A stretch of DNA of 64,000 bases from Desulfovibrio cuneatus DSM 11391 (GTDB taxonomy: Bacteria > Desulfobacterota > Desulfovibrionia > Desulfovibrionales > Desulfovibrionaceae). The stretch lies in NCBI RefSeq assembly GCF_000430005.1, contig NZ_AUCY01000011.1, forward strand, positions 1 through 64,000, given 5' to 3'. The position numbers were made by a program, and so were the translations under genes. Below, piece after piece: positions 3,690 to 58,329 of this stretch. Position 1 is the first letter of the stretch. Every line of letters begins with the position of its first letter. The notes below the pieces were generated by a model. It had not been told where the DNA came from. It searched no databases and saw nothing but the letters and a program-made list of their open reading frames with translations.

Positions 3690-4373
3690 TCAATTTCTTC
3701 TGGAATCAGAGAGTTCTTTTTCATCATCAGGCGTTACCGGAATTTGCCCCTGCACATAGTTAAACCCTAGCTGGATGTTGCTGTGCAGGATGTTCTCAAT
3801 GGTTGCAATATCATGATTTTTAAGGGCCACAAGAATTTCCTCGTGGTGTTCTATGGATTGTTTTCTGTACTCATAATCGTACGTATGTGTATTCAGGAAG
3901 GTATCTACATGGTCGTTCAGGTGGCCGAAAATATCTAATACATGGGGCATGTCTGCCACCGCATACCATGACAGGTGGAATGTTCTGTCGTGCCAGAAGA
4001 ACTTTTGCGCTTCGTCAATGTCTTTGCGGGAATTGGCCACAAGTTTCGTCAACTGTTTCAGCGTTGGTGCCGTCATTTTTTTCGCAGCGGCAAGGGCCAT
4101 TTGGGTTTCCACAAGCTTTCGCGTTTGGTAGATGGTGGCCATTTCTTCCAATGAAGGGGGGGCGCTCACCACCGCACCCTTAAAGGGAATATTCTCTACA
4201 AGGCCAGACCTGTCCAGGCGCATGAGGGCATCGCGCACTGGCCCTTGCCCCAAGCCCAGCTTTTTTTGTAAATCCGCAAGCACCAGGCGTGAACCGGGAA
4301 GATACTCTCCTGATAAAATGCCATCCCGTATCATCTGATAGGCCGTGACAGATTTGACAATGTTCTTTTTCAT
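3690..4373 (-). CDS. GntR-family regulator, FadR/FCD subgroup
   Basis: This is a 227-aa transcription factor. The N-terminal winged helix (about residues 8-70) has the family pattern LGLGQGPVRDALMRL and ENIPFKGAVV. An all-helical FCD ligand domain follows, with DRTFHLSWY near residue 130 and H/E residues (HHEE) later as likely metal or acid ligands. It is a clear paralogue of the regulator at 57398-58066, which also sits beside a TRAP operon. Divergent placement from the dctP operon at 4899 suggests it controls that operon and itself. AGGAG/AAGGA lies upstream of the ATG at a slightly long spacing. The ligand is unknown, possibly the organic acid taken up by the transporter. Confidence 0.88.
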   Translation of the reverse strand: MKKNIVKSVTAYQMIRDGILSGEYLPGSRLVLADLQKKLGLGQGPVRDALMRLDRSGLVENIPFKGAVVSAPPSLEEMATIYQTRKLVETQMALAAAKKMTAPTLKQLTKLVANSRKDIDEAQKFFWHDRTFHLSWYAVADMPHVLDIFGHLNDHVDTFLNTHTYDYEYRKQSIEHHEEILVALKNHDIATIENILHSNIQLGFNYVQGQIPVTPDDEKELSDSRRN

Positions 4374-4898
4374 GAATGGTCTGTTCCTTCTCCTGCAAAG
4401 ATTTTAAAATGGAATGTTCAGGTAATGCGAGTTCCGTGAATTTTGGAAACTCGCGTTTTTTCCTTGAATCAGGTGTCCATTTCATGAAAGGCAAGCAACA
4501 TTGCCAAACGGAATACATTAGCGTCTCCCCCGCACTCATCCCTAGGGGAACTCCCAATATATGTCAACATAACTTCTATTGAGATTATGCATATCTAGTT
4601 AAAATAATACGTGTTGCTTGTTGTTTTGGTAAGTATATTTTTCACAAGGCGCTCCCCTGCATGTGTGTAGAGAGTTGGTGGTAAATATATCTCAGTATTC
4701 TTTTATTTAAAATAAACAGCTAGTTGTGAGTTATTTTCAAAAATATTTTTTAAAATAAGTGTTAAAATGTTGACATTTCGAGCTTTTCATATGTATTGAG
4801 AAAAAAAGCGCAAGCTTATGTGCTTTGTGGCAAGGCTGGTTGCAGGGCAACCCTGCGGCTGAAAAAAGTAACAAGTATAGGAATGTGATGGAGTAAGT
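4374..4898. other. Regulatory intergenic region between GntR gene and TRAP operon
   Basis: This AT-rich 525-bp stretch lies between divergent genes. It holds a truncated end of repeat family C at 4501-4531 (reverse strand, containing GACGCTAATGTATTCCGTTT), a likely promoter at 4770-4799, and a small hairpin GCAGGG/CCCTGC at 4842-4856 in the dctP leader. I could not identify a clear operator palindrome like the one at 57289. Confidence 0.6.
4770..4799 (+). promoter_or_regulatory. Candidate sigma70 promoter for the first TRAP operon
   Basis: TTGACA (4770-4775) is followed after 18 bases by TATTGA. The leader to the dctP start would be about 95 bases. The -35 is perfect and the -10 is weak. Confidence 0.5.
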
Positions 4899-5912
4899 AT
4901 GAAGATGTTACAATTCTTTTCACGCAAAGTGGCACTTACCTTGGCCCTGGCTTTGGCTTTGTCGGCGGGTGGTGTTATTCAAGGCCATGCAGCCCGCATC
5001 ATCAAGCTCGCTCACCCTAACGTACCTGCCCACCCCATGGGGCAAGGCTATGAACTTTTTAAGAAAGACTTGGAAGAACGTTCCAAGGGCGCATTTAAAG
5101 TACAGATATACGACAGCTCAAAGTACGGTAACTTTGACGCAGTAGTGCAGGGCATCCGTATGGGTGTGTTGCAAATGGGTTCCGACGGTGTTGGCAACTT
5201 TTCTGTATTCAACCCTAAACTGATGCTTTTTGATATGCCGTTCATGATTCCCAGTTACGAAGCTTCCGACCTGATTACCGACGGCCCCATTGGCCAGGAA
5301 CTGGCCAAAAGTCTTGAAAGTAACAACATCAAGGGCCTTGGCTATATTGAAATTGGCTTTAAAAACATCTTTAGCAACCGCCCGGTACGTACCCTGGAAG
5401 ATGCCAAGGACTTGAAAATTCGCTCCACGCACTCCAAGGCACACATTGCTGTGTTGCAGGCATTGGGTATGAACCCCACCCCTGTGGCATGGGGTGAAGT
5501 ATACACAGCCCTGCAACAAAAAACCGTAGACGGCATTGATATTGACCTGAACCTTGCCTATTTCAACAAGTTTCCGGAATTGACCAAATACGTGACCATG
5601 TCGCGCACCGTATATTCCCCCCACCTTGTGATGATTTCCACAAAATTCTGGGACAAGCTGACCCCACAGGAACAGCAGTGGGTTACTGAATCCTTCAAGG
5701 TGATGCAAGAGTTTGAGCGTGCTGAAATCCGCAAGAACGAAGCGATGATTATTGAAAAAATCAAAGCTTCTGGCGGCGAGGTTATTGAACTTACACCTGA
5801 AGAGCGCCAGCGCTGGGTGGAAGCCACCAAAGGCGTGTTTGCCAAATTTAATGATGCTATTCCCGCTGCCACAGTAGAAGCTGTGCGCAACACCGTGAAT
5901 GCCGGAAAGTAG
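4899..5912 (+). CDS. TRAP transporter solute-binding protein (DctP family)
   Basis: This 337-aa periplasmic receptor has an N-terminal signal peptide (KVALTLALALALSAGG, probable cleavage near QGHA|A). The DctP fold follows, with the diagnostic stretch DAKDLKIRST around residue 170, whose arginine normally binds the substrate carboxylate. GEVYTALQQKTVDGID is also typical of the family. It should deliver an organic acid to the membrane pair encoded next. The start has GATGGAG upstream. A strong hairpin separates it from dctQ, which fits a binding protein made in excess of the permease. The substrate cannot be assigned. Confidence 0.92.
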   Translation: MKMLQFFSRKVALTLALALALSAGGVIQGHAARIIKLAHPNVPAHPMGQGYELFKKDLEERSKGAFKVQIYDSSKYGNFDAVVQGIRMGVLQMGSDGVGNFSVFNPKLMLFDMPFMIPSYEASDLITDGPIGQELAKSLESNNIKGLGYIEIGFKNIFSNRPVRTLEDAKDLKIRSTHSKAHIAVLQALGMNPTPVAWGEVYTALQQKTVDGIDIDLNLAYFNKFPELTKYVTMSRTVYSPHLVMISTKFWDKLTPQEQQWVTESFKVMQEFERAEIRKNEAMIIEKIKASGGEVIELTPEERQRWVEATKGVFAKFNDAIPAATVEAVRNTVNAGK

Positions 5913-5927
5913 ACTTTTTGTTCTTGC

Positions 5928-5963
5928 GGAGGGTACGTGTGGTTTGGCCATACGTACCTCTCC
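5928..5963 (+). terminator. Intercistronic hairpin between dctP and dctQ
   Basis: GGAGGGTACGT and ACGTACCTCTCC pair almost fully across a short loop, with only a few T residues afterwards. This looks like a partial terminator or mRNA-stabilising hairpin that lowers permease expression relative to the binding protein. Confidence 0.6.
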
Positions 5964-6013
5964 TTTACATAACGCAGGCTCCACCTTCATCGTTCAGCAT
6001 ACTGGAGACTCTC

Positions 6014-6493
6014 ATGCTACGCGTTTTAAAGAATATTGAAGAAGTTGTTTCTTCAAGCCTCTTGGGGCTCATGACTGTTGTCATTATCATTCAGGTCATC
6101 TTTCGGTATTTTATTTCGTACTCCCTGGCATGGCCTGAAGAATTGGGGCGCTACCTCTTTATTGCTTCCGTGTACATAGGCTCAAGCTATGTGGAACAAC
6201 ACGACAAGCACCTGGCCATTACCATTTTGCGCACCAACGGCGGGAAATTTTTGGGTAAATGGCTGCCAGTGTTTGTGCACTGCGTGACCATTGCCTTTTC
6301 TGGCCTTATGGCCGTGTGGGGCACACAAATGGTTGTTTTTATGTATGCAACAAACCAGCTTGCCCCGGCCATAGAACTTCCCATGTACATTGTGTATGCC
6401 TCCATCCCCCTGGGCATGGCGGGCATGGGCATTCGCGCCGCCATCAACCTTGCTCGCAACTGGCCAAAAAACCAGAGCCTTTGTTCAGAATAA
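6014..6493 (+). CDS. TRAP transporter small permease (DctQ)
   Basis: This 159-aa inner-membrane protein has four predicted membrane segments, the first near residues 14-32 (SLLGLMTVVIIIQVIFRYF). The family motif WPEELGRYLFIASVYIGSSY is present. DctQ proteins pair with DctM to form the sodium-driven permease. The start at 6014 follows CTGGAGA; the longer frame upstream runs through the intercistronic hairpin and is rejected. It lies 13 bases before dctM. Confidence 0.9.
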   Translation: MLRVLKNIEEVVSSSLLGLMTVVIIIQVIFRYFISYSLAWPEELGRYLFIASVYIGSSYVEQHDKHLAITILRTNGGKFLGKWLPVFVHCVTIAFSGLMAVWGTQMVVFMYATNQLAPAIELPMYIVYASIPLGMAGMGIRAAINLARNWPKNQSLCSE

Positions 6494-6506
6494 TAAGGGA
6501 TACATC

Positions 6507-7781
6507 ATGGAACTACCAATTATTTTAAGTGTAATCACCCTTGTTGTCATGCTGGCCTTGAGTGTGCCCATTGGCATTTCTATCGGCAGTTGTGTGGCTG
6601 TGGCTGTGCTGTTTGGCGACTTGCCAGTAGAATTTTTGCTGCAAAAAATGTTCACCTCCATCGACTCCTTCCCACTGCTGGCAGTGCCCTTCTTTATTTT
6701 GGCCGGGGAAATTATGCAAAAGGGGAGCATGGCCCAGGCCTTGCTCAACATTTCCCGCTGTCTTGTAGGGCATATCACAGGGGGCATGGCCCATGTTTCC
6801 ATTCTTACCAGCATGTTTTACGGGGCGCTGAGCGGTTCTTCCCCTGCTACTGTTGCGGCTGTGGGTGGCATCATGATTCCGGCCATGGAAAAAGAAGGCT
6901 ACAGCAAAGACTTTTCCGCAGCGGTGAACACGGCCAGCGGGTGCCTTGGGGTTATGATTCCCCCCTCAGTACCGCTGATTATTTATGGCACAACCGCCAA
7001 CGTTTCCGTGGGTGACCTGTTTTTATGCGGCATTGTCCCTGGCATTTTTATTGGCATACTGCTTATGGTGCTCAGCTACTTTATGTCTAAGCGCTATGGC
7101 TATGTAGGCACATCAACCCGGGCCAGCGTTGGAGACACCATGAAGGCACTTGGCAAGGCCAAATACGCCTTGCTGGTTCCCCTTATTGTGCTGGGCGGTA
7201 TTTATGGCGGCATTACTACCCCTACGGAAGCCGGTGCCATTGCCGTTATTTATGCCTTTGCTGTGGAAGGGTTTGTTCTGAAAACACTCTCCCTTCGCGC
7301 TGTCATGGATATTTTTAAAGGGGCAAGCCTTACCTCCGCTTCCATTTTTATTGTGGTAGCAACGGCAAGTGCCTTTGGCCAGCTTCTTATGATTTATAAC
7401 GTGCCAGATACGCTGGTGGAATGGCTTTCCGGCATGGCTGGCAATAAAAATCTTCTTTTGTTCGCTGTAGTTATCCTGCTGCTGGTCACAGGCACCTTCA
7501 TGGACGCCCTTGCCAACATCCTCATTCTTACGCCCCTGTTGCAGCCGTTGCTCATCACTGCGGGTGTGGATATGACCCACTTTGGCATTATCATGATTGT
7601 GGCCTGTTCCCTTGGTTTCCTTACCCCCCCGGTGGGCGTGAACCTGTTTGTGGGGTGCGGCATTGCCAAAATCAGCATTGAACGTTTAAGCTATGCCGTG
7701 TTGCCCTTCCTTGGGGTTATGATCATTGGGCTCTTGGTACTCACGTACGTTCCTGCCATTTCTTTGTTCATTTTGAAGTAA
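6507..7781 (+). CDS. TRAP transporter large permease (DctM)
   Basis: This 424-aa polytopic membrane protein (about 12 hydrophobic segments) forms the transport channel. The family stretches SGSSPATVAAVGGIMIPAM, IPPSVPLIIYG and TPTEAGAIAV are all present. The start at 6507 has AAGGGA upstream, and the longer frame overlapping dctQ is rejected. It is followed after 12 bases by the 418-aa orphan, so the four genes are probably one transcript. Confidence 0.93.
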   Translation: MELPIILSVITLVVMLALSVPIGISIGSCVAVAVLFGDLPVEFLLQKMFTSIDSFPLLAVPFFILAGEIMQKGSMAQALLNISRCLVGHITGGMAHVSILTSMFYGALSGSSPATVAAVGGIMIPAMEKEGYSKDFSAAVNTASGCLGVMIPPSVPLIIYGTTANVSVGDLFLCGIVPGIFIGILLMVLSYFMSKRYGYVGTSTRASVGDTMKALGKAKYALLVPLIVLGGIYGGITTPTEAGAIAVIYAFAVEGFVLKTLSLRAVMDIFKGASLTSASIFIVVATASAFGQLLMIYNVPDTLVEWLSGMAGNKNLLLFAVVILLLVTGTFMDALANILILTPLLQPLLITAGVDMTHFGIIMIVACSLGFLTPPVGVNLFVGCGIAKISIERLSYAVLPFLGVMIIGLLVLTYVPAISLFILK

Positions 7782-51341: not shown

Positions 51342-52331
51342 TTACTTTTTATTGAGAATAGCCTGTACTTTGTCTACCACGGCCTTGCCGCCAACGGCGT
51401 CATACATTTTTGGCCATACAACTTCCAGGGCAATCTTTTTCCACTCTGCTTCATCCGTCAGGGTGGAAACTTCCATGCCGCCATTTTGCAGGCCAACCTT
51501 GGCCTTGTCTGCTTCCAGGGTTTGGAACAGCAAGCCATACATTTGCGCTTCCAGAGCGGCCTGCAATACGATTCCTTGCAGTTCCTTGTCCATTTTATCA
51601 AATGTTTTCATGCCAATAATCATGGGTTGCAGGGAATACTGGTAATGTACTTCGGTGAGGTACTTCTGCACTTCATGGAACTTGGAGGTGTAGTTTACAA
51701 TGTAGGGGTTTTCCTGCCCGTCAAGCACACCCTGTTGCAAGGCCGTGAAGGTTTCAGACCAGTCCATGGGCACGGGGTTTGCGTCCCAGGCCTTGAATGT
51801 TTCAAGAATAATCTGGTTGTGGGGCACGCGAATTTTCAGGCCTTTCACGTCTGCCAGGCTTTTAATGGGGCGTTTGGAGTTGGTAATGTAGCGGAAGTTG
51901 GAGTAAGTCCAGCCAATAATTTTGAACCCGCCATTTTTCATGGCATAGTCGTTCCACATCTGGTTCAGTTCGCCCGTGGTTACCTTGACTACGTCATAGG
52001 GCGTTTGCAACAGGTAGGGCATGGAAAGTGTGCCCAGCTCTTTAACAAAAGGAACAGCATTGCCAACACCGATAATGGCGATGTCCAGTGTGCCCATGCG
52101 GGCATTTTGCAGCATTTCTGTTTCCGTGCCCAGGGCACCGTTGGGGAACAGTTCTACTGTTACTTTGCTATGGCTGAGGCCTTCAACAATTTCCTTAAAG
52201 CGCAGGGCAAAAGCGCCCTGGTCAGAATCTAGCGGGTCGCCCATGCCCACGCGCAGTGTTTTGGCGTACACCGCAGTGGACATAAGAACCATAACAAGTG
52301 CTGAAACGAGGAACAGTGTGAATTTACGCAT
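51342..52331 (-). CDS. TRAP transporter solute-binding protein (second operon)
   Basis: This 329-aa periplasmic receptor has the signal peptide FLVSALVMVLMSTAVYA|K. The DctP fold follows, with the substrate-arginine region DVKGLKIRVPHN near residue 155 and WSETFTALQQGVLDGQENP. It is only distantly similar to the dctP at 4899. Its place at the end of the operon, after two enzymes and away from dctQ/dctM, is unusual. Ribosome site GAAGGGG. Confidence 0.92.
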   Translation of the reverse strand: MRKFTLFLVSALVMVLMSTAVYAKTLRVGMGDPLDSDQGAFALRFKEIVEGLSHSKVTVELFPNGALGTETEMLQNARMGTLDIAIIGVGNAVPFVKELGTLSMPYLLQTPYDVVKVTTGELNQMWNDYAMKNGGFKIIGWTYSNFRYITNSKRPIKSLADVKGLKIRVPHNQIILETFKAWDANPVPMDWSETFTALQQGVLDGQENPYIVNYTSKFHEVQKYLTEVHYQYSLQPMIIGMKTFDKMDKELQGIVLQAALEAQMYGLLFQTLEADKAKVGLQNGGMEVSTLTDEAEWKKIALEVVWPKMYDAVGGKAVVDKVQAILNKK

Positions 52332-52380
52332 TGTACAAACCCCTTCTTTACATGGTGAAAAAGCGGATAAAACACATACG

Positions 52381-53580
52381 CTATGCCAAAATTTCTTTTG
52401 CGGCCTGGTGAATAATCTGTCCTATAAGGGTACAGTCCTGTGTAGTGAAGGTTAAGGGGAGCCTTATGTCGCACAGTTTGGCGAGAATGGCATCGGTTTT
52501 GGGCAGGGTTTGGGTAAGGCCCAGGTATTTCCATGTTTTATAGGAAGAGGTGAAGCCAATGGGCTTTGGCTCGCCAAACCATTTAATGTGTACGCCGCGC
52601 TCTTCACAGGTTTTAAGAAACTGGCGTATGTTTTGTGGTGTGCTGTTTTCAATGGAAAACTGCAAGGAACTGGGCACAAAGTCTTCTTTGGGGCTTCTGC
52701 TGGGCAGCACAATATTGGGGGTGTGGGCAAGTTCTGCCGCCAGTGCGTGGTACAGGTCTTTCCAGCGCTGGCATTGTGCCTCCAGGTTACGCAATTGCAC
52801 CCGTAAAAGGCTGGCCCGCAGGTTGTCCATGCGGCTGCTGTAATTGGGGACATCCAGGGCAATTTTTTCAAACACGGCTTTGTCTGGCCGGGAAAGGTGC
52901 TTTTCATACAGCATGTAGGAACCGGAAAGGATAATGGCCTTTGCCAGGTACTCTTCGTTGTCTGTTACCAGCAGGCCACCTTCGCCGGAGTTCATGTGCT
53001 TGTAAGTTTGGGTGCTGAAGCAGGCAATGGCCCCAAAGGAACCGCTTTTTTTATTGTTCCAGTGTGCCCCCATGGTGTGGGCGCAGTCTTCAATAAGCAC
53101 AATGCCGTGCCGCTGGCATATGTCCATAACGGCGTCCATGTCTGCAATGTGCCCGCGCATGTGGGAAAGCAGCAAATACCGTGATTTATATTGCGCGGCT
53201 TTGCGCTCCAGGTCGGCAAGGTCTATGGTGTAATTGTTTTCTTCAATTTCCACAAAAACGGGCTGGGCGCCGGAATTTTCCAGGGCTCCCGGCACCGGGG
53301 CAAGAGTAAAGGCGTTGCAGAGCACGGTGTCGCCTTTTTGCACGCCTGCCACTTTCAGGGCCATATACAAAGAACTGCCGCACGAACTGCATGCAAGGCA
53401 AAACTTTTTGCCCATGTAAGCGGCAAATTCCTGTTCAAGCAGGGCCGCGTCCCCTGCTTCTGCGTCGGTATTGTAGCGAAACAGCCTGCCTGTGCGCATA
53501 AGCACTACGGCGTTTTCAATGGCTTCTTCTGGTAAGGGTTCTTGCTGGGTAAAACTTTTGGTAAACATCAGGTGTGGCAT
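52381..53580 (-). CDS. DegT/DnrJ/EryC1-type PLP aminotransferase
   Basis: This 399-aa fold-type I PLP enzyme has the features of this family: CLACSSCGSSLYMALKVAGV near residue 60, GAQPVFVEIEENNYTIDLADL, VLIEDCAHTMGAHWNNKKSG near 175, and the PLP lysine in STQTYKHMNSGEGGLLVTD. These enzymes usually aminate keto-sugars, but this copy sits between a TRAP receptor and a HisD-like dehydrogenase, so a small imported substrate is more likely than a surface sugar. The start at 53580 has AGGAGAGG; the 13-residue extension is rejected. Confidence 0.85.
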   Translation of the reverse strand: MPHLMFTKSFTQQEPLPEEAIENAVVLMRTGRLFRYNTDAEAGDAALLEQEFAAYMGKKFCLACSSCGSSLYMALKVAGVQKGDTVLCNAFTLAPVPGALENSGAQPVFVEIEENNYTIDLADLERKAAQYKSRYLLLSHMRGHIADMDAVMDICQRHGIVLIEDCAHTMGAHWNNKKSGSFGAIACFSTQTYKHMNSGEGGLLVTDNEEYLAKAIILSGSYMLYEKHLSRPDKAVFEKIALDVPNYSSRMDNLRASLLRVQLRNLEAQCQRWKDLYHALAAELAHTPNIVLPSRSPKEDFVPSSLQFSIENSTPQNIRQFLKTCEERGVHIKWFGEPKPIGFTSSYKTWKYLGLTQTLPKTDAILAKLCDIRLPLTFTTQDCTLIGQIIHQAAKEILA

Positions 53581-53691
53581 AGCCTCTCCTTTTGCCTGCT
53601 GCCAGCCAGTGGTCTTCATGGTGAAATGCTTGCTTCATGCCAGGCAAAGCCTGCCTGCAAGCGGTTCATGGCTGGCAGCCATGGGAACACG

Positions 53692-55008
53692 TTAAATTTT
53701 GTAGACAGGATGCTGGTATACGGGGAAGTCCCATTGCTTTTCCGGGAAAAACTTGGTCAGCCGCCAGTCGCACGCCCTGGCATGGCCTTCCATGCCTTCC
53801 AGCCGTGAAAGGCGTGAGGCTGCGCCGCTAATGAGGGTCGTGGCCTCTTCTGTGACTTCCTGGTAGGTATAAATTTTCAAAAATTTATGGACGTTCAGGC
53901 CACCGCTGAAATGGCCAGCGCGCTTTGTGGGCAGAATATGGTTTGTGCCGGAACACTTGTCGCCCTGGGCTACGGTGCTGCCTTCCCCAATGAACATGGA
54001 ACCATAGGAGCTGAGCTTTTCAAGCCACCAGGGCAGGTCTTGGGCCAGCACCTGAATATGCTCTGGGGCATAGCTGTCGCTTACTGTGCACAATTCCTCG
54101 CGGGAGTCGCACAGAATAATTTCCCCATAGTCGCGCCAGGCAGCTTCCGCCACTTCGGCATTGGGCAGGTCGGCAATAACCTTGGGCATAAGCTGTAACA
54201 CGGCGTTGGCCAGTGCTTCGCTGTCGGTAAACAGCCACACAGGAGAGTTTACCCCGTGTTCAGCCTGGGAAACAAGGTCAATGCACACTGTCATGGGGTC
54301 GGCTGTTTTGTCTGCAATAATGCCAGACTCTGTAGGGCCTGCAAAAACGTCAATGGTACACTGCCCGGAACCTGCCACAAAGGCTTTGGCTTCTGCCACA
54401 AAGGCATTGCCTGGCCCCACCAGAATGTTGGCAGGCTTGCCTGTGAACAGGCCATACGCCATGGCCCCAATGGCCTGAATGCCGCCGAGTTCCAGAATAA
54501 TGTCTGCCCCGGCCAAATCCATGGCATAGCAGGTAGCGGCGTCAATGCTGGTGCCCCGTGGGGGGGTTGCGGCAATAACCGTTTTCACGCCGGCTGCCTT
54601 GGCTGTGGCAATGCTCATAATGGCAGAACATACATGGGCATAACGCCCCCCAGGCACATAGCACCCGGCCACTTCCATGGGAATTATACGCTGCCCAAGC
54701 TTTACCCCTGCCGAGGAGGTCATGGAAAATTCCTGAATGCTGTTTCTTTGCATGGTGGCAAAGGTTGAAACCTGCTCAAAGGCAAATTCTATGTCCCGCT
54801 TGGCGCTGGCTGGTACGGAATCAATAAGCTGCTTTCGCTTACTGGCTGAAAGTACAATGTCCTGTTGCCACTTGTCGAACTTGAAGGCCAGTTCCTTCAC
54901 GGCTTCTTCCCTGCGCAGCACAATGTCATTCATGGTTTGAATAACAACCTGCCGGGCAGAATCGCTGTTCTCCTGGGTGGTTAACAGGGCTTTTTTCACA
55001 TGACGCAT
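53692..55008 (-). CDS. Histidinol-dehydrogenase-family enzyme, possibly sulfopropanediol dehydrogenase-like
   Basis: This 438-aa zinc- and NAD-dependent dehydrogenase has the HisD core: MEVAGCYVPGGRYAHVCSA, VGPGNAFVAEAK, DVFAGPTES, SQAEHG (zinc Gln/His), YAPEHIQV (catalytic Glu-His), GDKCSGTNHILPT (Asp ligand) and a C-terminal His in EGMEGHARA. All key residues are present, so it should oxidise an alcohol to an acid in two steps. Not being in a his operon and lying in a TRAP/GntR cluster resembles HpsN, which oxidises dihydroxypropanesulfonate. That assignment is inference only. Strong GGAGGAG before the start. Confidence 0.85.
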   Translation of the reverse strand: MRHVKKALLTTQENSDSARQVVIQTMNDIVLRREEAVKELAFKFDKWQQDIVLSASKRKQLIDSVPASAKRDIEFAFEQVSTFATMQRNSIQEFSMTSSAGVKLGQRIIPMEVAGCYVPGGRYAHVCSAIMSIATAKAAGVKTVIAATPPRGTSIDAATCYAMDLAGADIILELGGIQAIGAMAYGLFTGKPANILVGPGNAFVAEAKAFVAGSGQCTIDVFAGPTESGIIADKTADPMTVCIDLVSQAEHGVNSPVWLFTDSEALANAVLQLMPKVIADLPNAEVAEAAWRDYGEIILCDSREELCTVSDSYAPEHIQVLAQDLPWWLEKLSSYGSMFIGEGSTVAQGDKCSGTNHILPTKRAGHFSGGLNVHKFLKIYTYQEVTEEATTLISGAASRLSRLEGMEGHARACDWRLTKFFPEKQWDFPVYQHPVYKI

Positions 55009-55041
55009 GGTAACTCCTCCACTATGAGTAAGGTGGGTGTG

Positions 55042-56328
55042 CTATTTAAAGCCAAAAAGGTTGGGCAACGTCAAAACAAGTTGAGGGAATATTGCCAGCA
55101 CAATTATGGCCGCCAGCATGGCCAGGCAGAATGGTATGGCTTTGAGCGAGAGTTCTTCAAGGCTTACGTCTGAAATGCCCGAAGCAATGAACAGGTTTTC
55201 ACCCAGGGGCGGAGTGGAAAAGCCCACCGCGCAGCAGCACACCAGAATAATGCCAAAGTGAATGGGGTCTACCCCCAAGCTTATCATAACAGGCAGCAGC
55301 ACAGGGGTAACAAGCATGATAATGGCCAGGGTTTCCATGAACATGCCAATGAACAGCAGGAACGCAATGACAAGGGCCCAAATAATAACAGGCTCTGTTG
55401 TCAGGCTGAGTATGCTGGAGGCAATGACTTCCGGAATTTTATACTGCACCAGCAAGCGGCCAAAGGCATAAGCGGTGAACATGATAATAAGCACACGCCC
55501 TGTAAGCCATGAACAGGTTTCAAGGGAGCGCATTATGCCTTTCAGGGTGAGTTCCTTGTAAACAAATAAGCCAATGAACAGAGTATAAAAAATGGCTACA
55601 ATGGCAGATTCCGTGGGGGTAAAGAAGCCGGAGTAAATGCCCCCAAGAATGATGAGCGGAGCAAGAATGGCCCACACCCCATCACGCACAGCCTTTTTCA
55701 GGTTGTGTGTAGCCAGCACTTCCGGGCTGGCCTGCAACCCTTTGTTTCTGCAATACAGGTAGTGGGTAAGCACAAGGGTGCTGGCAATAAGCAGCCCTGG
55801 TACAACCCCGGCCACAAACATTTTGGTAATGGAAACCTGGGCGGTAACGCCGTAAATAACCATGGGAATGCTGGGAGGGATAATAATGCCAATGCCCCCC
55901 GCGGTGGCAGTGGTGGCCCCTGCATAGCGTGGGTCGTAGTTGTTGCGGATCATGGCAGGAATCATAAGCATGCCAATGGCTGCTGTGGTGGCGGGGCCAG
56001 AGCCGGAAATTGCCCCAAAAAAGACGCAGGCAAGGGTAGTGGAAATGGCAAGCCCACCAGAAATTTTTCCTGTCATGGCTTCTGCAATGTGCACCAGCCG
56101 CCGGGAAATGCCGGCACCTTCCATCAGGGCACCTGCCAATACAAAGGCAGGCAAAGCCATAATGGGGAAGGAGTTTACAGAGTTAAAGGCAATTTGCACA
56201 ATGCTGCTTAAGTCCTGGTCAGCTACCAAAAAGGTAGCCATGGCAGAAACACCCAGGGCCACAGCAATGGGGGACCCCATAAGAAGCAGCACAATAAATG
56301 TAGAGAAAAGGACAAGTGTGTAGCTCAT
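55042..56328 (-). CDS. TRAP transporter large permease (DctM)
   Basis: This 428-aa polytopic membrane protein has the DctM hallmarks SGSGPATTAAIGMLMIPAM near residue 105, IPPSIPMVIYGVTA, FTPTESAIVAIFY and LVTPVLLPVMISLGVDPIHFG. Its ATG directly abuts the dctQ stop (TAAATG). It is followed by the HisD-like gene after 33 bases. Confidence 0.93.
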   Translation of the reverse strand: MSYTLVLFSTFIVLLLMGSPIAVALGVSAMATFLVADQDLSSIVQIAFNSVNSFPIMALPAFVLAGALMEGAGISRRLVHIAEAMTGKISGGLAISTTLACVFFGAISGSGPATTAAIGMLMIPAMIRNNYDPRYAGATTATAGGIGIIIPPSIPMVIYGVTAQVSITKMFVAGVVPGLLIASTLVLTHYLYCRNKGLQASPEVLATHNLKKAVRDGVWAILAPLIILGGIYSGFFTPTESAIVAIFYTLFIGLFVYKELTLKGIMRSLETCSWLTGRVLIIMFTAYAFGRLLVQYKIPEVIASSILSLTTEPVIIWALVIAFLLFIGMFMETLAIIMLVTPVLLPVMISLGVDPIHFGIILVCCCAVGFSTPPLGENLFIASGISDVSLEELSLKAIPFCLAMLAAIIVLAIFPQLVLTLPNLFGFK

Positions 56329-56877
56329 TTATTCCCCCTGCTCTTTAGCAATAAGTTCGGCATACTCTTCCGGTGCTACCTTATCTACATCTTCCAGTTC
56401 CATTTTTAATACATATTTCATGTAGTTAACCTGTATAATACGAATAGTCATAAGGGTAAAACTAATGGGGAAAATGTAGTAGACATATTCCATGGAGAGC
56501 CCAAGGGCAGGAGAATGGTATTTGTATTTTGCCAGGTCTTGAATAACAATGATGCTTTCTTTGATCATGATGATGTTAAAGGCAATCCATACCATATCAG
56601 AAAGCAACAAAAGAACCTTTTCAAAGGCTTTTGGCAGTAGTTTGAACTGCACAGTGACCCGGTTGTGGGCACCCAGGCGGGCAGCATAGGATGCCCCAAA
56701 AAACACAAACCACACAAAGGAGAAGCGAGAAATTTCCTCGCTCCAGGTGACGACGTAGTTAAACGCGACCCGCAAGAATATTTGTGAAAATAAGATACAT
56801 ACAAAAAAAACAAGTAAAATCTGCGCCATATAGTTTTCAGCGCCATCAAGAAAATGTAAAATTTTTTTTGCGCTCAT
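56329..56877 (-). CDS. TRAP transporter small permease (DctQ)
   Basis: This 182-aa protein has four membrane segments (first ILLVFFVCILFSQIFLRVAF) and the family stretch WSEEISRFSFVWFVFFGASY. It is the first gene of the minus-strand operon dctQ-dctM-hisD-like-degT-dctP, divergent from the GntR gene. GGAGTGAAGG precedes the ATG. The C-terminal tail is acidic. Confidence 0.9.
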   Translation of the reverse strand: MSAKKILHFLDGAENYMAQILLVFFVCILFSQIFLRVAFNYVVTWSEEISRFSFVWFVFFGASYAARLGAHNRVTVQFKLLPKAFEKVLLLLSDMVWIAFNIIMIKESIIVIQDLAKYKYHSPALGLSMEYVYYIFPISFTLMTIRIIQVNYMKYVLKMELEDVDKVAPEEYAELIAKEQGE

Positions 56878-57397
56878 CCTTCACTCCATAGGTTAAGGTG
56901 CCGAAATATATGAAAATTAAACGTAATTCATTGATTGAGCTAATATATTGAAGTATTGGGCGAATTGAAGCTTGTATCAAGTTGGAATTATTTGGCAAGG
57001 ACTTTACGTCAATCCCCAAAATTTGACGAAATGGCTATAATGGAAAGTGTACTATACTAACGGGTAGACCAATAATGGCAGCAACAGCCCATGCCAAAAG
57101 TGCGCAGGAATCTTGGGTTTTTTACGCTGACTATGCTGATAAACATTCTGAGACGCCATGTACCCCCCCCAAAAACTTTACAGGTTTATGTACCCAGCTC
57201 GGCGTAACTCCTTTACCAGCGTAGTTAACGTCTTGCTGGTAACGAAGGCTTGTTGGTGAAAAGCTAGCACATGGTTTTTTCACGGTCAAGATTTCATGAA
57301 ATATTTCACAATATATTTCATGAAATCTATGAAATGGAATAGAGTATGTTGCAAAATCCCATTGACCCCCCATGACTTTGCTGCTTATAACATACTC
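56878..57397. other. Divergent regulatory region between TRAP operon and GntR gene
   Basis: This 520-bp AT-rich intergenic region has a nested palindrome at 57289-57328. Candidate promoter parts on the minus strand include TTGACG near 57010 followed by AT-rich sequence; on the plus strand TATAAT lies near 57033. None is strong enough to fix a start site. A run near 57240-57275 (AACGAAGGC, GTTGGTGAAAAG) resembles a fragment of family A. Confidence 0.5.
57289..57328. promoter_or_regulatory. 40-bp nested palindrome, probable GntR operator
   Basis: Two perfect copies of ATTTCATGAAAT lie at 57291-57302 and 57315-57326, 24 bp centre to centre (just over two helical turns). They lie inside a larger inverted repeat with ends AGATTTCATGAAATAT and ATATTTCATGAAATCT. 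It sits 70-110 bases before the GntR start, the expected place for autoregulation by a dimer pair. Confidence 0.75.
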
Positions 57398-58066
57398 ATG
57401 CATACTCAAAATAACCCAGAATACCATGCCCCTAAGTCACTTATTGCTTATGAAATGATATGCAAAATGATTTTAAGTGGCGCAGCCCTTCCTGGAACCC
57501 GGCTTATTCTCGTTGAACTTGAACAAAAATTAGGCATGGGCCGGGGGCCCATACGTGATGCTTTGTTGCTTTTGGATAAGTCAGGGCTTGTGCAAAACAT
57601 TCCCTACAAAGGGGCAGTGGTAATGATGCCCCCTGGCTACAGGGAAATGGTGCTTATTTACGAACAGCGCTGTCATCTTGAAATTGCCCTTGCGGTGGAA
57701 GCAATGCGCCTGTCCAGCCCGGAAGATATTCATTCCCTTGCAGCCAAAGCGAAGGAAATGGAACTGCTTCCGCAAGAAAAAGGCTATTTTTTTCATATGG
57801 ACAGGGAATTTCACCACCAGTTGTATCAGCTTTCACGCATGCCGCATCTTGTGTCCATTGTGGAACATCTTATGGATTTTGTGCAGGTATTCCTTACATT
57901 GCGGGCCTATTCTGTGACACACAAAGAGCTTTTCAATCAGCAACATGAAGCCATAATTCAAGCCCTTTGGCAAAAAGACGAAGCGCTACTGAGAACAACA
58001 TTAGAGAATAATATTATGGTAGGGCTTGAGGCAGTGCGCGAAGAGTTGCAACGCTTTTCCCGTTAA
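57398..58066 (+). CDS. GntR-family regulator, FadR/FCD subgroup (second copy)
   Basis: This 222-aa regulator is paralogous to the one at 3690-4373: the wHTH KLGMGRGPIRDALLLLDKSG and QNIPYKGAVVMMP match nearly word for word. The C-terminal FCD domain has DREFHHQLYQLSRMPH and QQHEAIIQALW with likely metal-binding His/Glu/Asp. The start at 57398 is chosen by alignment with its paralogue; no good ribosome site precedes it. It is divergent from the dctQ operon, which it probably controls through the palindrome at 57289. Confidence 0.88.
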   Translation: MHTQNNPEYHAPKSLIAYEMICKMILSGAALPGTRLILVELEQKLGMGRGPIRDALLLLDKSGLVQNIPYKGAVVMMPPGYREMVLIYEQRCHLEIALAVEAMRLSSPEDIHSLAAKAKEMELLPQEKGYFFHMDREFHHQLYQLSRMPHLVSIVEHLMDFVQVFLTLRAYSVTHKELFNQQHEAIIQALWQKDEALLRTTLENNIMVGLEAVREELQRFSR

Positions 58067-58235: not shown

Positions 58236-58329
58236 TGGCGGAAGCGTATAGGAGTCGAACCTACAATGGACATCACTGCCCACCACTGGTTTTGAAGACC
58301 AGGCGCCACACCGGTGACGAAACGCTTCC
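58236..58329 (-). tRNA. selC: tRNA-Sec (selenocysteine, anticodon TCA)
   Basis: This 94-nt gene has the acceptor GGAAGCGT pairing with ACGCTTCC, an encoded GCCA end, the anticodon loop CTTCAAA with TCA inside arm CTGGT/ACCAG, and a very long variable arm typical of selenocysteine tRNAs. The T arm GTAGGTTCGACTCCTA is intact. Its presence means UGA can be decoded in this organism. No selA, selB or selD lies in the window. Confidence 0.95.

What the first reader, a model, noticed from the sequence alone, without database searches (positions are those of the whole stretch)
51342..58066. TRAP operon joining a HisD-like dehydrogenase to a DegT aminotransferase
The order dctQ-dctM-hisD-like-degT-dctP is unusual: two enzymes lie between permease and receptor. 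The dehydrogenase keeps all zinc and catalytic residues and would turn a primary alcohol into an acid. The aminotransferase would act on a keto group or aldehyde. Together they suggest catabolism of an amino or sulfonated polyol. Resemblance to HpsN systems for dihydroxypropanesulfonate suggests a sulfonate route that could feed sulfite respiration in this type of organism.
Basis: partly seen in the sequence, partly recalled or inferred. Interest (0 to 1): 0.6.

Follow-up and report, generated by a model that had tools for sequence, protein, structure and literature searches.

The report
Probable aminosulfonate breakdown operon
This bacterial gene cluster most likely imports and breaks down a small compound holding both sulfur and nitrogen (probably cysteinolic acid, made by algae) and passes its sulfur on toward hydrogen sulfide; the same enzyme pair recurs in many marine and gut bacteria.

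Summary
In detail: dctQ-dctM-hisD-like-degT-dctP on the minus strand, with a divergent GntR gene. The dehydrogenase is not the biosynthetic HisD, which lies elsewhere in the genome. It is HpsN-type, with the HpsN-only sulfonate motif GRYAH and all zinc and catalytic residues checked. The split TRAP order is unusual, but the hpsN-degT pair recurs in Desulfobacterota, Gammaproteobacteria and Alphaproteobacteria.

Of 52 hpsN-degT units with enough flank, 41 have cysteate sulfo-lyase cuyA nearby and 39 a cuyB-like racemase. In none did I find hpsO/hpsP, suyAB or sulfolactate/sulfopyruvate genes, the hallmarks of dihydroxypropanesulfonate (DHPS) catabolism. Some units use taurine-type ABC or amino-acid permeases instead of TRAP. 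The host has cuyA, cuyB and dsrA.

Best reading: catabolism of a C3 aminosulfonate, most likely cysteinolate, to cysteate and then sulfite. HpsN-like oxidises the primary alcohol; DegT handles the C2 amino group. The order of steps is open. No substrate was tested. I found no bacterial cysteinolate pathway in the open-access texts looked at; a key review was not readable.

The parts
56329..56877 (-). dctQ, TRAP small permease
   Evidence: PF04290 97.8 bits
55042..56328 (-). dctM, TRAP large permease
   Evidence: PF06808 351.7 bits; TIGR00786 388.5 bits
53692..55008 (-). hpsN-like zinc/NAD sulfonate alcohol dehydrogenase, 438 aa; GRYAH motif at residues 121-125, catalytic E316-H317, Gln319 two residues on
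   Evidence: PF00815 411 bits; CpHpsN 497 bits, E 4.3e-148; residues; trees
52381..53619 (-). degT, PLP fold-type I aminotransferase, 412 aa, Lys207 in the YKHMNSGEGG motif
   Evidence: PF01041 218.9 bits; no NCBIfam cut-off reached; K207 kept in at least 98% of 92 relatives
51342..52331 (-). dctP, TRAP solute-binding protein, placed after the enzymes
   Evidence: PF03480 227.9 bits; PDB relatives 24gh, 4pfr
57296..58066 (+). divergent GntR/FCD regulator (start codon uncertain)
   Evidence: PF07729 64.5 bits, PF00392 35.2 bits; 18 GntR hits of 42-71% identity lie by other DegT units
56878..57295 (.). intergenic region between the operon and gntR, the likely regulatory region (inferred)
   Evidence: divergent arrangement; four inverted repeats, 74-89% complementary, none compelling

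Best explanation
The operon imports a C3 aminosulfonate, most likely cysteinolate (2-amino-3-hydroxypropanesulfonate), through the TRAP transporter and turns it into cysteate. The HpsN-like enzyme oxidises the primary alcohol to a carboxylate with NAD+ (four electrons). The DegT enzyme moves the C2 amino group. Cysteate is then epimerised by CuyB and cleaved by CuyA (both encoded on another contig of the same genome) to pyruvate, ammonium and sulfite, and sulfite is respired to sulfide by Dsr. Shown here: gene content, families, conserved residues, linkage of relatives to cuyA/cuyB, absence of DHPS genes near them, presence of cuyA, cuyB and dsrA in the host. Inferred: the substrate, transport specificity, regulation and every reaction in this organism. 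Two orders of steps fit. (i) Direct: HpsN-like turns cysteinolate into cysteate, DegT is accessory. (ii) By way of the ketone: DegT converts cysteinolate to 2-oxo-3-hydroxypropanesulfonate, HpsN-like oxidises that to sulfopyruvate, and transamination (perhaps by DegT itself) gives L-cysteate, which CuyB turns into the D-cysteate that CuyA prefers. I lean slightly to (ii) because every gene then has a role.
For: Of 52 DegT-HpsN units with at least 6 kb of flank, 41 have CuyA and 39 a CuyB match within 8 kb; HpsO/P, SuyAB, SlcD, Ldh or ComDE were found by 0 of 52, against 17 of 29 non-DegT units. In the order, 15 of 17 genomes with DegT-linked HpsN carry CuyA over its cut-off, against 85 of the other 331. 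Plasmid units in Mesorhizobium (two), Ancylobacter, Ensifer, Shinella and Paracoccus alcaliphilus are compact: cuyA-degT-cuyB-tauABC-like-hpsN, three of them followed by a YeiH/sulfate-exporter-type gene. NCBIfam cut-offs were passed by six of six CuyA and five of six CuyB proteins scanned from related units, and by the host's own pair. Transporters near the 52 units: TRAP 27, taurine-type binding protein 8 plus 1, amino-acid permease 5, none detected 11. FAD N-demethylase-like or MttB-like genes lie near 4 of 52 DegT units and 0 of 29 others. Sulfonate-binding His and Lys are kept. The residue two after the catalytic His (Cp321) is Gln or His in 65 of 65 DegT-, CuyAB- or FeADH-linked enzymes and Glu or Thr in 20 of 20 from the HpsO/P clades and the TRAP clade without DegT; only 11 of 364 regroupings of clades give any such column.
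Against: No enzyme, transporter or growth test exists here. In the window's genome cuyA and cuyB are not in this operon, and 11 of 52 units show no CuyA within 8 kb. DegT has no essential role in order (i), and the ketone route (ii) has no direct support. CpHpsN oxidises R-DHPS and is inhibited by L-cysteate (PMC11382572), so a DHPS-specific enzyme could look the same. The first residue marker (Cp226) failed on a larger set; Cp321 was found by scanning, and two PF00815 relatives without the GRYAH His also have Gln there. FeADH-linked units have CuyA without DegT, and one has SuyAB too. CuyA also occurs in 4 of 9 genomes whose HpsN is only of the other types. Five of the 39 CuyB matches are only 29% identical to the query, and the one of these scanned scores 175 bits, below the 190 cut-off. 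Two of the four N-demethylase cases are MttB hits of 26% identity. The units share ancestry, so P values overstate independence.
Confidence: 0.55

Rival explanations
1. DHPS route through cysteate. HpsN oxidises R-DHPS to R-sulfolactate, an unlinked dehydrogenase makes sulfopyruvate, and DegT is the unidentified sulfopyruvate-to-cysteate aminotransferase of the CuyA pathway.
For: This pathway is described for Ruegeria pomeroyi, where the aminotransferase gene is said to be unknown (PMC11382572). HpsN residues are all kept. The host also has a SuyB-like and a SuyA-like gene elsewhere, so sulfolactate may be used there.
Against: No sulfolactate dehydrogenase or HpsO/P gene found by any of 52 units; ComC-type Ldh_2 not found in the host (other sulfolactate dehydrogenases were not searched for); taurine-type and amino-acid transporters are unexplained; Cp321 differs from DHPS-linked enzymes.
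Confidence: 0.22
2. Catabolism of another alcohol, not a sulfonate, with the HisD-fold enzyme and DegT acting on an amino polyol or inositol-like compound.
For: The best-scoring DegT structures are inositol-type and sugar aminotransferases; DctP ligand unknown.
Against: HpsN-only sulfonate motif and Lys; linkage to CuyA in 41 of 52 related units.
Confidence: 0.1
3. The pair makes cysteinolate rather than degrading it, DegT aminating 2-oxo-3-hydroxypropanesulfonate, for example for lipid head groups.
For: 26 of 92 DegT relatives, among them many Rhodobacteraceae, show no HpsN, CuyA or FAD oxidase hit within 8 kb. The SAL aminolipid of marine roseobacters has a cysteinolic acid head group (PMC11631085, passages), and the biosynthesis of cysteinolic acid was called unestablished (PMC8319176, passage).
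Against: The window unit has an uptake transporter and an HpsN-type oxidase, and most related units carry a sulfolyase.
Confidence: 0.08

Closest known systems
HpsN (R-DHPS 3-dehydrogenase) systems: hpsN-hpsO-hpsP with suyAB, or with slcD-comDE
   Same: Same dehydrogenase family, zinc and sulfonate residues, often a TRAP transporter
   Different: No hpsO, hpsP, suyAB, slcD or comDE found by DegT units; degT present; cuyA/cuyB linkage; different residue at Cp321
Taurinivorans muris hpsN-dctPQM-suyAB cluster (PMC10507020, passages read)
   Same: Desulfovibrionaceae gut bacterium, HpsN plus TRAP, sulfonate respiration; that strain did not grow on racemic DHPS
   Different: SuyAB beside HpsN and no DegT reported in the passages; similar TRAP/SuyAB units here (L127, L169) have Glu at Cp321. 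The strain's own HpsN sequence was not seen
CuyA/CuyB cysteate pathway
   Same: Same end enzymes, in the host genome and in related units
   Different: Here the upstream pair hpsN-degT would supply cysteate from another compound
Histidinol dehydrogenase HisD
   Same: Family PF00815 and the catalytic Glu-His
   Different: 32% identity to the host's own HisD, which lacks the GRYAH His and the Lys

Membership tests
HpsN (DHPS 3-dehydrogenase) | closer in sequence to HpsN than to HisD | tested here: met
   497 bits to CpHpsN, at most 222 bits to HisD chains
HpsN (DHPS 3-dehydrogenase) | G-R-Y-A/S-H motif with zinc/sulfonate His | tested here: met
   GRYAH at 121-125; motif from PMC11382572
HpsN (DHPS 3-dehydrogenase) | zinc ligands, Glu-His catalytic pair, Asp352 and Lys353 equivalents | tested here: met
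   Q248, H251, H409, E316, H317, D350, K351
HpsN (DHPS 3-dehydrogenase) | hpsO and hpsP close by (selection rule of PMC11382572) | tested here: not met
   no hit near the window unit or the other 51 DegT units
HpsN (DHPS 3-dehydrogenase) | oxidises R-DHPS to R-sulfolactate | not testable with these tools
   needs an enzyme assay
HisD (histidine biosynthesis) | orthologous to HisD, without the GRYAH His | tested here: not met
   a 503-bit HisD lies on contig C13; window has the GRYAH His
DegT/DnrJ/EryC1/StrS aminotransferases | PF01041 match and PLP lysine | tested here: met
   218.9 bits; Lys207; that this Lys binds PLP rests on family knowledge
CuyA/CuyB cysteate pathway | CuyA and CuyB in the genome | tested here: met
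   510.6 and 263.2 bits, over cut-offs; 1.7 kb apart on contig C1
Cysteinolate catabolism | growth on, or enzymatic turnover of, cysteinolate | not testable with these tools
   needs experiment

The most novel reading that the evidence does not exclude
hpsN-degT marks a widespread, undescribed bacterial pathway for cysteinolate (and perhaps its N-methylated forms): DegT makes 2-oxo-3-hydroxypropanesulfonate, a specialised HpsN makes sulfopyruvate, and DegT returns the amino group as L-cysteate, so a self-coupled transamination feeds CuyB, CuyA and sulfite respiration.
Probability: 0.3. Interest if true: 0.75.

Novelty: new variant of a known kind. Interest (0 to 1): 0.55.

Why it matters
Cysteinolic acid is reported as a widespread algal metabolite whose cell content can exceed that of DMSP (PMC8703288, passages and section 2.1 read), but I saw no bacterial catabolic genes for it in the texts looked at. 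A marker gene pair would make its turnover traceable in sea, sediment and gut, would link it to sulfide production, and offers a candidate for an aminotransferase said to be unknown in C3-sulfonate metabolism (PMC11382572).

Tried and rejected
Residue Cp226 (Ser/Thr, contacts the product carboxylate) at first separated DegT- and FeADH-linked from DHPS-linked enzymes. On a larger set 8 of 8 alphaproteobacterial HpsO/P-linked enzymes have Thr too, as does the PDB entry 8wwe named (R)-DHPS dehydrogenase. Rejected.

Residue Cp321 was then found by scanning columns after the fact. Sequences seen later agree (L170 Glu, 8wwe Thr), and 11 of 364 clade regroupings give at least one such column. Kept as suggestive only.

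HpsN phylogeny (quick trees): DegT-linked enzymes are not one clade, and the window enzyme groups beside TRAP-type enzymes without DegT, so tree position alone does not give the substrate.

The unit in Ruegeria SCSIO 43209 has cuyA-cuyB-hpsN without degT (both cuy proteins pass cut-offs). I considered it as a sign that DegT is dispensable, but a chromosomal DegT cannot be excluded from a plasmid record.

Crude gene calling picked wrong-strand frames in GC-rich loci, so counts were redone with tblastn. Units with under 6 kb of flank (12 of 93) were dropped before counting. The 29 non-DegT units include two PF00815 relatives without the GRYAH His (L163, L164). Counts see only fetched DNA: CuyA lies about 6 kb downstream of HpsN in G038 and G044 beyond the stretch taken (coordinates), so CuyA by non-DegT units is 5 of 29 rather than 3. 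Plasmid regions fetched: 22, chosen by me from the listed hits.

Inverted repeats in the regulatory region were not compelling. Structure prediction and fold search were not run.

Literature searches. 'Cysteinolate' gave 0 papers, 'cysteinolic acid' 13. Of those 13 I looked at passages of 8 (PMC8703288, also one section; PMC11631085, PMC11131964, PMC11766726, PMC11286703, PMC8027193, PMC9695272, PMC8319176); 5 were seen as listing only. PMC11382572: abstract, sections 2.4, 2.5, 2.8 and passages. PMC10507020: passages. The review doi 10.1039/D2OB00362G was not held, so priority is unchecked.
Full report
Observation. The six genes lie where stated and all match their families. Gaps within dctQ-dctM-hpsN-degT-dctP are 0, 33, 72 and 49 bases, so one transcript is likely (inferred). 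The gntR gene diverges. Permease before and receptor after the enzymes was seen only in the window among 26 DegT units with both DctM and DctP on the HpsN strand; it is probably a local rearrangement.

The dehydrogenase. Its best PDB relatives are Cupriavidus pinatubonensis HpsN (497 bits) and 8wwe, named (R)-DHPS dehydrogenase (424 bits); HisD chains score at most 222 bits. PMC11382572 reports that the motif G-R-Y-A/S-H marks HpsN against HisD and that its His and a Lys contact the sulfonate. Both are present, with the zinc and catalytic residues. The host has a separate HisD on another contig (503 bits) and a third, sub-cut-off PF00815 hit; the HisD is 32% identical to the window enzyme. No HpsN-like match at E up to 1e-60 was found in the 14 other genomes of the genus searched, many of them incomplete; 35 of 348 genomes of the order have one at E up to 1e-80.

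The recurring pair. A search with DegT gave 541 stretches encoding a relative, of which the best 80 loci were kept. Of these 80, 47 hold an HpsN, 38 a CuyA and 49 either; many contigs are short. Over all loci I counted 93 distinct HpsN units, 81 with at least 6 kb of flank. 52 of the 81 have DegT within 8 kb (within 700 bases in 42): 41 with CuyA, 39 with a match to the CuyB query, 0 with HpsO/P, SuyAB, SlcD, Ldh or ComDE. The 29 others: 3 with CuyA (5 if coordinates beyond the fetched DNA are used), 14 with HpsO/P, 7 with SuyAB, 7 with sulfolactate/sulfopyruvate genes, 17 with at least one of the last three kinds. These sets come partly from DegT searches, so they are not frequencies in nature.

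Identity of CuyA and CuyB. Proteins scanned from related units pass the NCBIfam cut-offs for D-cysteate sulfo-lyase (L046, L140, L142, L162, L139, L134: six of six) and cysteate racemase (L049, L140, L142, L162, L144: five of six). The exception is the racemase of the gut-type unit L134, 175 bits against a cut-off of 190. Five of the 39 CuyB matches are of this 29%-identity kind, so they may be another racemase.

Whole genomes. CuyA over its cut-off is in 100 of 348 genomes of the order, in 15 of the 17 with DegT-linked HpsN and in 85 of the other 331 (Fisher P 2.7e-7, not corrected for kinship). The two misses, G183 and G254, are incomplete drafts. All 5 genomes in which an iron alcohol dehydrogenase stands in place of DegT have CuyA; 4 of 9 genomes whose HpsN is only of the other types do too. 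The host has CuyA and CuyB 1.7 kb apart on contig C1 and DsrA.

Substrate logic. Six alphaproteobacterial plasmid units hold cuyA, degT, cuyB, a taurine-type ABC transporter and hpsN. Five of 52 DegT units, in gut-type Desulfovibrionaceae, have an amino-acid permease. Four of 52 have an FAD N-demethylase-like or MttB-like gene near, two of them weak matches; further such genes lie just outside 8 kb in L139 and L143. With cysteate as the implied intermediate this points to an amino sulfonate with a primary alcohol: cysteinolate. PMC11131964 (passages) detected cysteinolic acid and its ketone in DHPS-producing algae and cites a proposed conversion between them, which is the reaction I suggest for DegT.

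Stereochemistry, inferred. HpsN takes R-DHPS, which by my own reading has the spatial arrangement of L-cysteate. [quoted passage not shown] A ketone intermediate would remove the mismatch and explain the racemase. This is reasoning, not a result.

Residue evidence. Cp226 was rejected after a wider test. Cp321, Gln319 in the window, is Gln or His in 65 of 65 DegT-, CuyAB- or FeADH-linked enzymes, and Glu or Thr in 20 of 20 others: 13 of the HpsO/P clades (12 with hpsO/P beside them, and L125) and 7 of the TRAP clade without DegT, two of which have SuyAB in view. Two PF00815 relatives without the GRYAH His (L163, L164) also have Gln. It was found by scanning, so it is a lead.

Verdict. A real, conserved catabolic unit built of known parts, a new variant of HpsN systems. 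The pathway is inferred, the substrate untested, and priority could not be checked in subscription literature.

Noticed in passing
L138 (host contig C26:5000-22000), 2-9460 and 16101-16994: A second sulfonate-type locus in the host: a SuyB-like gene (PF20629/PF04295), a SuyA-like gene (tblastn 61%, no family hit), a LarAH5-type nickel racemase over its cut-off, a sulfolactaldehyde-reductase-like dehydrogenase below cut-off, an aldehyde ferredoxin oxidoreductase, a TRAP receptor and an Xsc-like gene cut by the stretch. The racemase could act on sulfolactate.
   Followed up: partly
L119 9049-14839: Host cuyA and cuyB with a symporter-like gene between them, then another transporter-like gene and a GntR-like gene; names other than CuyA and CuyB are my reading of the sequence.
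   Followed up: partly
L128, L129, L133, L171, L172: An iron alcohol dehydrogenase stands in place of DegT beside HpsN, with RidA and CuyA in L129 and L172.
   Followed up: partly
L078, L084, L086, L093, L100, L101, L104-L107, L110, L112, L113: Rhodobacteraceae and kin carry a close DegT with no HpsN or CuyA hit in the fetched stretch; possibly cysteinolate synthesis for aminolipids.
   Followed up: no
L120 4551-6149: A sulfatase-family gene upstream of an hpsN-degT-cuyA-cuyB unit.
   Followed up: no
window 3690-7781: A second TRAP transporter with a divergent GntR gene in the same window.
   Followed up: no
window 58236-58329, minus strand: A selenocysteine tRNA gene next to the gntR gene.
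   Followed up: no
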